Below, piece by piece: positions 47,375 to 47,867 of a stretch of 64,000 nt of DNA (its first letter is position 1; each line of letters opens with the position of its first letter). This DNA comes from Catellicoccus marimammalium M35/04/3. GTDB taxonomy: Bacteria; Bacillota; Bacilli; Lactobacillales; Catellicoccaceae. The notes beneath the pieces are model-generated. The model was not told the DNA's origin, did no database searches, and saw nothing but the letters and a program-made list of their open reading frames with translations. Location: positions 62,001-126,000 of the forward strand of contig NZ_AMYT01000011.1 of NCBI RefSeq assembly GCF_000313915.1. Direction: 5' to 3'. The position numbers and the translations under genes were made by a program.

Positions 47375-47405
47375 AATTTTTTTCAAAAAAAATTACAAAA
47401 AAGTC

Positions 47406-47434
47406 TTGCCAAATAATAAAATAACAGTTATTAT
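47406..47434 (+). promoter_or_regulatory. Promoter for the tRNA cluster
   Basis: TTGCCA and TATTAT are separated by 17 bp and placed 31 bp before the first tRNA-like sequence. This suits a strong stable-RNA promoter. Confidence 0.65.
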
Positions 47435-47465
47435 ATAGGAGTCAGGTTGATACGACAGGACAAAG

Positions 47466-47593
47466 GGAGGAGTAGCGAAGTGGCTAAACGCGACGGACTG
47501 TAAATCCGTTCCTTCGGGTTCAGTGGTTCAGCCAAGCGGTAAGGCAAGGGACTTTGACTCCCTCATGCGTTGGTTCGAATCCAGCTACCCCAG
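47466..47593 (+). pseudogene. Hybrid tRNA-Tyr::tRNA-Gln fragment
   Basis: Bases 47466-47529 are identical to the first 64 bases of the intact tRNA-Tyr (47624), including the GTA anticodon at 47500-47502. Bases 47530-47593 are identical to the last 64 bases of tRNA-Gln, with TTG at 47554-47556. The Tyr part lacks the 17-base 3' end; the Gln part lacks the first 8 bases. The junction is exactly what a 30-bp deletion within a Tyr-TTGAT-Gln pair would give (17 + 5 + 8). The acceptor strands GGAGGAG and TACCCCA cannot pair, so no functional tRNA is expected. It could be a real deletion or an assembly error between repeats. Confidence 0.85.
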
Positions 47594-47623
47594 TTAGAAA
47601 ATAGAATATATTCTCTAAATTAG

Positions 47624-47704
47624 GGAGGAGTAGCGAAGTGGCTAAACGCGACGGACTGTAAATCCGTTCCTTCGGGTTCAGTGGTTCGAATCCACTCTCC
47701 TCCA
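47624..47704 (+). tRNA. tRNA-Tyr (anticodon GTA)
   Basis: An 81-base class II tRNA: acceptor arms GGAGGAG and CTCCTCC with discriminator A, D-arm region GCGAAGTGGCTAAACGC, anticodon stem ACGGA/TCCGT with GTA at 47658-47660, long variable arm, and T arm AGTGG/CCACT around TTCGAAT. CCA is not encoded, so it must be added by the CCA enzyme. Confidence 0.97.
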
Positions 47705-47709
47705 TTGAT

Positions 47710-47781
47710 TGGGGTATAGCCAAGCGGTAAGGCAAGGGACTTTGACTCCCTCATGCGTTGGTTCGAATCCAGCTACCCCAG
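47710..47781 (+). tRNA. tRNA-Gln (anticodon TTG), copy 1
   Basis: A 72-base tRNA: acceptor arms TGGGGTA and TACCCCA with discriminator G, anticodon stem AGGGA/TCCCT with TTG at 47742-47744, and T loop TTCGAAT. It lies 5 bp after tRNA-Tyr. CCA is not encoded. Identical in sequence to the next copy. Confidence 0.97.
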
Positions 47782-47795
47782 TTTATAATTTATTT

Positions 47796-47867
47796 TGGGG
47801 TATAGCCAAGCGGTAAGGCAAGGGACTTTGACTCCCTCATGCGTTGGTTCGAATCCAGCTACCCCAG
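47796..47867 (+). tRNA. tRNA-Gln (anticodon TTG), copy 2
   Basis: Identical 72-base duplicate of the preceding tRNA-Gln, separated by a 14-bp AT-rich spacer. Anticodon TTG at 47828-47830; CCA is not encoded. Confidence 0.97.

What the first reader, a model, noticed from the sequence alone, without database searches (positions are those of the whole stretch)
47466..47867. Hybrid tRNA-Tyr::tRNA-Gln in a tandem Tyr/Gln cluster
The first unit is the first 64 bases of tRNA-Tyr joined to the last 64 bases of tRNA-Gln. The missing 30 bases equal 17 (Tyr 3' end) + 5 (spacer) + 8 (Gln 5' end), exactly the interval between the intact Tyr and Gln genes downstream. The junction shows no clear microhomology. 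The hybrid keeps both anticodons (GTA, TTG) but cannot form an acceptor stem. It may be a deletion scar after cluster duplication, or an assembly error between repeats. If real and transcribed from the promoter at 47406, it would give a tRNA-like fragment with stable D and anticodon arms.
Basis: partly seen in the sequence, partly recalled or inferred. Interest (0 to 1): 0.75.

Follow-up and report, generated by a model that had tools for sequence, protein, structure and literature searches.

The report
Assembly scar in tRNA-Tyr/tRNA-Gln repeat
The apparent half-tyrosine, half-glutamine tRNA gene is almost certainly a draft-genome assembly error: two contig ends were glued together inside a repeated tRNA pair, losing the 30 middle bases, and a second error of the same kind lies elsewhere in the same genome.

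Summary
The hybrid is in the sequence as described: 64 nt of tRNA-Tyr followed by the last 64 nt of tRNA-Gln, 30 nt missing, no microhomology. It is most likely not in the organism. The exact match to the intact copy is 66 nt on each side of the junction, so the loss sits in the exact centre of a 162-nt repeat. If the first pair is really intact, de Bruijn contigs at k = 67, and at no other odd k from 41 to 99, end at 47529 and restart at 47530. A second scar, at C19:14532 in a secreted-protein gene, lacks 11 nt against its paralogue, breaks the reading frame, and is reproduced only by k = 67 of seven k tested. No such junction was found in other genomes. The likely true locus is Tyr-Gln-Tyr-Gln-Gln, an expanded version of the single Tyr-Gln pair relatives carry beside the same genes. 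Reads across 47400-47700 would settle it.

The parts
47406..47434 (+). promoter-like site TTGCCA-17-TATTAT upstream of the tRNA cluster
   Evidence: consensus scan, 10 of 12 matches; not tested for function
47464..47529 (+). left arm of the scar: 66 nt identical to 47622-47687 (AG plus first 64 nt of tRNA-Tyr); predicted end of the left k=67 contig
47529..47530 (+). junction: 30 nt absent relative to the intact Tyr-Gln pair, zero microhomology; read as an assembly join
47530..47595 (+). right arm of the scar: 66 nt identical to 47718-47783 (last 64 nt of tRNA-Gln plus TT); predicted start of the right k=67 contig
47624..47705 (+). intact tRNA-Tyr(GTA)
   Evidence: ARAGORN, Rfam 64.4 bits
47709..47782 (+). 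intact tRNA-Gln(TTG)
   Evidence: ARAGORN, Rfam 64.8 bits
47795..47869 (+). second intact tRNA-Gln(TTG)
   Evidence: ARAGORN, Rfam 64.8 bits
47873..47904 (+). intrinsic-terminator-like hairpin and T run closing the cluster
   Evidence: consensus scan

Best explanation
The hybrid gene is an assembly artefact. In the organism the first unit is most likely an intact Tyr-Gln pair, giving Tyr-Gln-Tyr-Gln-Gln. Its 162-nt sequence repeats in the second unit. In a Velvet run at k = 67 the contig from the left flank ends k-1 = 66 nt inside the repeat, and the contig from the right spacer starts 66 nt before the repeat's end. The two were joined as neighbours without the 30-nt centre, and the join survived into the final contig. 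Shown: the symmetry, the k = 67 fit at two loci, the type of assembler used. Inferred: that a k = 67 run was made, the program step that joined the ends, and the true sequence between them.
For: (1) Genome identity: contigs of 308,478 and 153,794 bp equal the published maximum and N50 of the C. marimammalium draft, made with Velvet 1.0.13 over a range of k-mers, pooled and re-assembled with 454 reads (PMC3569323). (2) Exact matches to the intact unit are 66 nt left and 66 nt right; equal arms have about 0.8% chance for a random deletion. (3) De Bruijn simulation with unit 1 intact: of all odd k 41-99 only k = 67 puts the two contig ends at 47529 and 47530. (4) A second scar in the same assembly: C19:14532-14534 lacks 11 nt relative to C9:3481-3622 and breaks a secreted-protein gene. 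Of odd k 61-73 only k = 67 reproduces it, with the contig ends merged by their longest overlap, 1 nt; 4 of 5253 possible deletions would match by chance. (5) In about 242 kb of the genome examined these are the only short-overlap junctions with 60 nt or more on both sides. (6) The junction is absent from GTDB genome contigs, from IMG/VR and, as a Tyr/Gln-type fusion, from 395 other genomes of the order; the 3 other pattern hits hold no tRNA. (7) Both arms are 100% identical to intact copies. (8) The Velvet/Pebble paper states that neighbouring contigs are merged across an estimated gap and that many such gaps are very short (PMC2793427).
Against: The reads are not available here. The paper does not state which k were used, and an earlier study by the same group used k of 21-37. 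Velvet normally writes N for a gap. 454 reads longer than the repeat should have corrected the join. Other repeats of 74-166 nt in the tRNA clusters show no such scar. The paper reports 31 contigs of 500 bp or more; 23 are held.
Confidence: 0.93

Rival explanations
1. A real 30-bp deletion fused the first tRNA-Tyr and tRNA-Gln of a duplicated pair, leaving a recent dead tRNA relic that is tolerated because intact Tyr and Gln copies remain.
For: Intact Tyr and Gln copies exist here and on C14, so loss would be tolerated. The junction 9-mers are new. A tandem Tyr-Gln Tyr-Gln arrangement exists elsewhere, for example Lentilactobacillus kosonis L065.
Against: Equal 66-nt arms and the k = 67 coincidence at two loci. 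No microhomology, no substitution in 128 nt, no relative with the junction.
Confidence: 0.06
2. The hybrid is real and functional: a transcribed two-anticodon tRNA-like RNA or a processed variant tRNA-Gln.
For: It lies behind a promoter-like site. The Gln part still passes the Rfam tRNA cut-off at 40.7 bits.
Against: Three of seven acceptor pairs are lost, including U1-A72, which bacterial tRNA-Gln charging and amidation rely on (PMC9976931). The RNA folds no better than shuffled sequence (z -0.51 and +0.39). No conservation. And the join itself is probably not real.
Confidence: 0.01

Closest known systems
Collapsed or misjoined repeats in short-read de Bruijn assemblies (Velvet/Pebble, PMC2793427)
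   Same: Contig ends fall k-1 bases inside a repeat, and neighbours are joined across an estimated gap.
   Different: Here the join carries no N and lost 30 nt (tRNA) or 11 nt (C19 gene); the exact program step is not known.
Tandem tRNA-Tyr/tRNA-Gln operon of Lactobacillales beside the GntR-regulator gene
   Same: Same gene order (small DUF gene, Tyr, Gln, GntR, YigZ) in relatives such as L006 and L064.
   Different: Those relatives have one Tyr-Gln pair at the site; this genome has a second unit and an extra Gln.
tRNA gene copy change by duplication in bacteria (PMC7661048)
   Same: Shows that identical extra tRNA copies arise by duplication.
   Different: The words for a hybrid or chimeric tRNA do not occur in it, and it concerns 45-290 kb duplications.

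Membership tests
de Bruijn contig-join artefact at a repeat | junction flanked on both sides by exact repeat matches of the same length k-1, k odd | tested here: met
   66 and 66 nt, k = 67
de Bruijn contig-join artefact at a repeat | same k explains other anomalous junctions of the assembly | tested here: met
   C19:14532 scar reproduced by k = 67 only, of seven k tested
de Bruijn contig-join artefact at a repeat | assembly made with a k-mer assembler | tested here: met
de Bruijn contig-join artefact at a repeat | raw reads do not support the junction | not testable with these tools
   reads not held
biological deletion fusion of tRNA genes | junction seen in independent genomes or strains | tested here: inconclusive
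   absent from other genomes, but no second genome of this species or family is held
functional tRNA | complete acceptor stem and identity pair | tested here: not met
   4 of 7 pairs; A.A in place of U1-A72

The most novel reading that the evidence does not exclude
A real, recent, homology-independent 30-bp deletion that fused two tRNA genes into one two-anticodon RNA, transcribed ahead of the intact genes.
Probability: 0.05. Interest if true: 0.35.

Novelty: not a real feature. Interest (0 to 1): 0.07.

Why it matters
It removes a false 'chimeric tRNA' from consideration. It also gives a simple test for such claims: equal exact-repeat arms of length k-1 on both sides of a junction without homology point to a glued contig join. 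The same fault probably breaks at least one protein gene in this reference genome of a gull-associated bacterium used as a faecal-source marker.

Tried and rejected
Biological deletion by microhomology or slippage: no homologous base at the junction. Conserved fusion in relatives: none in GTDB contigs or 395 other genomes of the order; three pattern hits were not tRNAs. Stable tRNA-like RNA: folds like shuffled sequence. Reading k from contig-end overlaps: contig ends do not overlap systematically, only one 18-nt dovetail (C11e/C15s); the long list of 400-nt 'overlaps' in that output is withheld contigs reading N. Viral collection for another copy of the locus: nothing. Plasmid search: mainly ordinary tRNA matches in two pieces. 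Same family: only this genome held.

Full report
What is there. At 47466-47593 the first 64 nt of tRNA-Tyr are followed by the last 64 nt of tRNA-Gln; relative to the intact pair downstream, 30 nt (GAATCCACTCTCCTCCATTGATTGGGGTAT) are absent, and the junction has no microhomology. The cluster continues with intact Tyr, Gln and a further Gln, between a promoter-like site and a terminator-like hairpin. Rfam still recognises the Gln part (40.7 bits against 64.8 for the intact gene): 4 of 7 acceptor pairs remain, but U1-A72 is lost. Bacterial tRNA-Gln charging and amidation use that pair (PMC9976931).

Where it comes from. The window lies in a 1.28-Mb genome of 23 contigs. Contig C15 is 308,478 bp and C19 is 153,794 bp, exactly the maximum and N50 given for the Catellicoccus marimammalium draft (PMC3569323). 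That assembly pooled Velvet contigs from several k-mer lengths and re-assembled them with 454 reads.

Comparison. Close relatives carry a single Tyr-Gln pair at the same site (small DUF gene, Tyr, Gln, GntR regulator, YigZ). The junction is absent from GTDB contigs. A pattern that would catch a Tyr/Gln fusion of this type matched this genome and three others of 396; those three places hold no tRNA. No other genome of the family is held, so strain variation cannot be tested.

The decisive point. The exact match to the intact unit runs 66 nt to the left (47464-47529) and 66 nt to the right (47530-47595). The repeat would be 162 nt = 66 + 30 + 66, so the loss is exactly central. In a de Bruijn assembly a contig entering a repeat stops after k-1 repeat bases. 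I placed the intact unit at this site in a simulation with the other tRNA clusters and walked the graph for all odd k from 41 to 99: only k = 67 puts the left contig end at 47529 and the right contig start at 47530. The chance of equal arms for a random deletion is about 0.8%.

A second scar. In about 242 kb of contig ends and repeat-bearing stretches, one other junction has long arms on both sides: C19:14532-14534 against C9:3481-3622 (67 and 67 nt, 3 shared bases, 11 nt missing). It shifts the frame of a secreted-protein gene whose paralogues are open. For odd k of 61 to 73, only k = 67 reproduces the assembled sequence, if the two contig ends (...GCAAAAT and TTCAAAA...) are merged by their longest overlap, one T. 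At the tRNA junction the corresponding ends (...GGTTC and AGCC...) share nothing, so they simply abut. One value of k and one joining rule thus explain two unrelated places.

How the join was made is inferred. The Velvet authors state that neighbouring contigs are merged across an estimated gap, and that many such gaps are very short (PMC2793427); an underestimated gap of zero would give a bare join. Why N was not written, and why 454 reads did not repair it, is not known. That k = 67 was among the runs is also inferred.

Verdict. The hybrid is most likely not a feature of the organism (0.93). The likely real locus is a Tyr-Gln-Tyr-Gln-Gln operon, ordinary apart from its copy number, though the true sequence between the two contig ends is not shown. 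A real deletion remains possible (about 0.06).

Noticed in passing
G000:C19:14401-14600 (L152, L159): A secreted-protein gene is frameshifted by an 11-nt loss relative to its paralogue on C9 (3414-3950); it fits a k = 67 contig join and is probably an assembly error, so the two pieces likely belong to one gene.
   Followed up: yes
window 47783-47794: A second tRNA-Gln follows the Tyr-Gln pair after a 12-nt A+T-rich spacer; relatives at this locus have one Gln, so the copy number has grown here.
   Followed up: partly
G000:C9 3414-3950, C12 11391 and 16303, C19 11254 and 14401, C11 35522: A family of large secreted repeat proteins; C9 and C12 end inside members of it, so contig breaks fall in this family.
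   Followed up: partly
G000:C2:265-1057: A block of tRNA genes (Ser-Met-Asp) is duplicated within a 17-tRNA cluster (exact runs of 100 and 166 nt).
   Followed up: no
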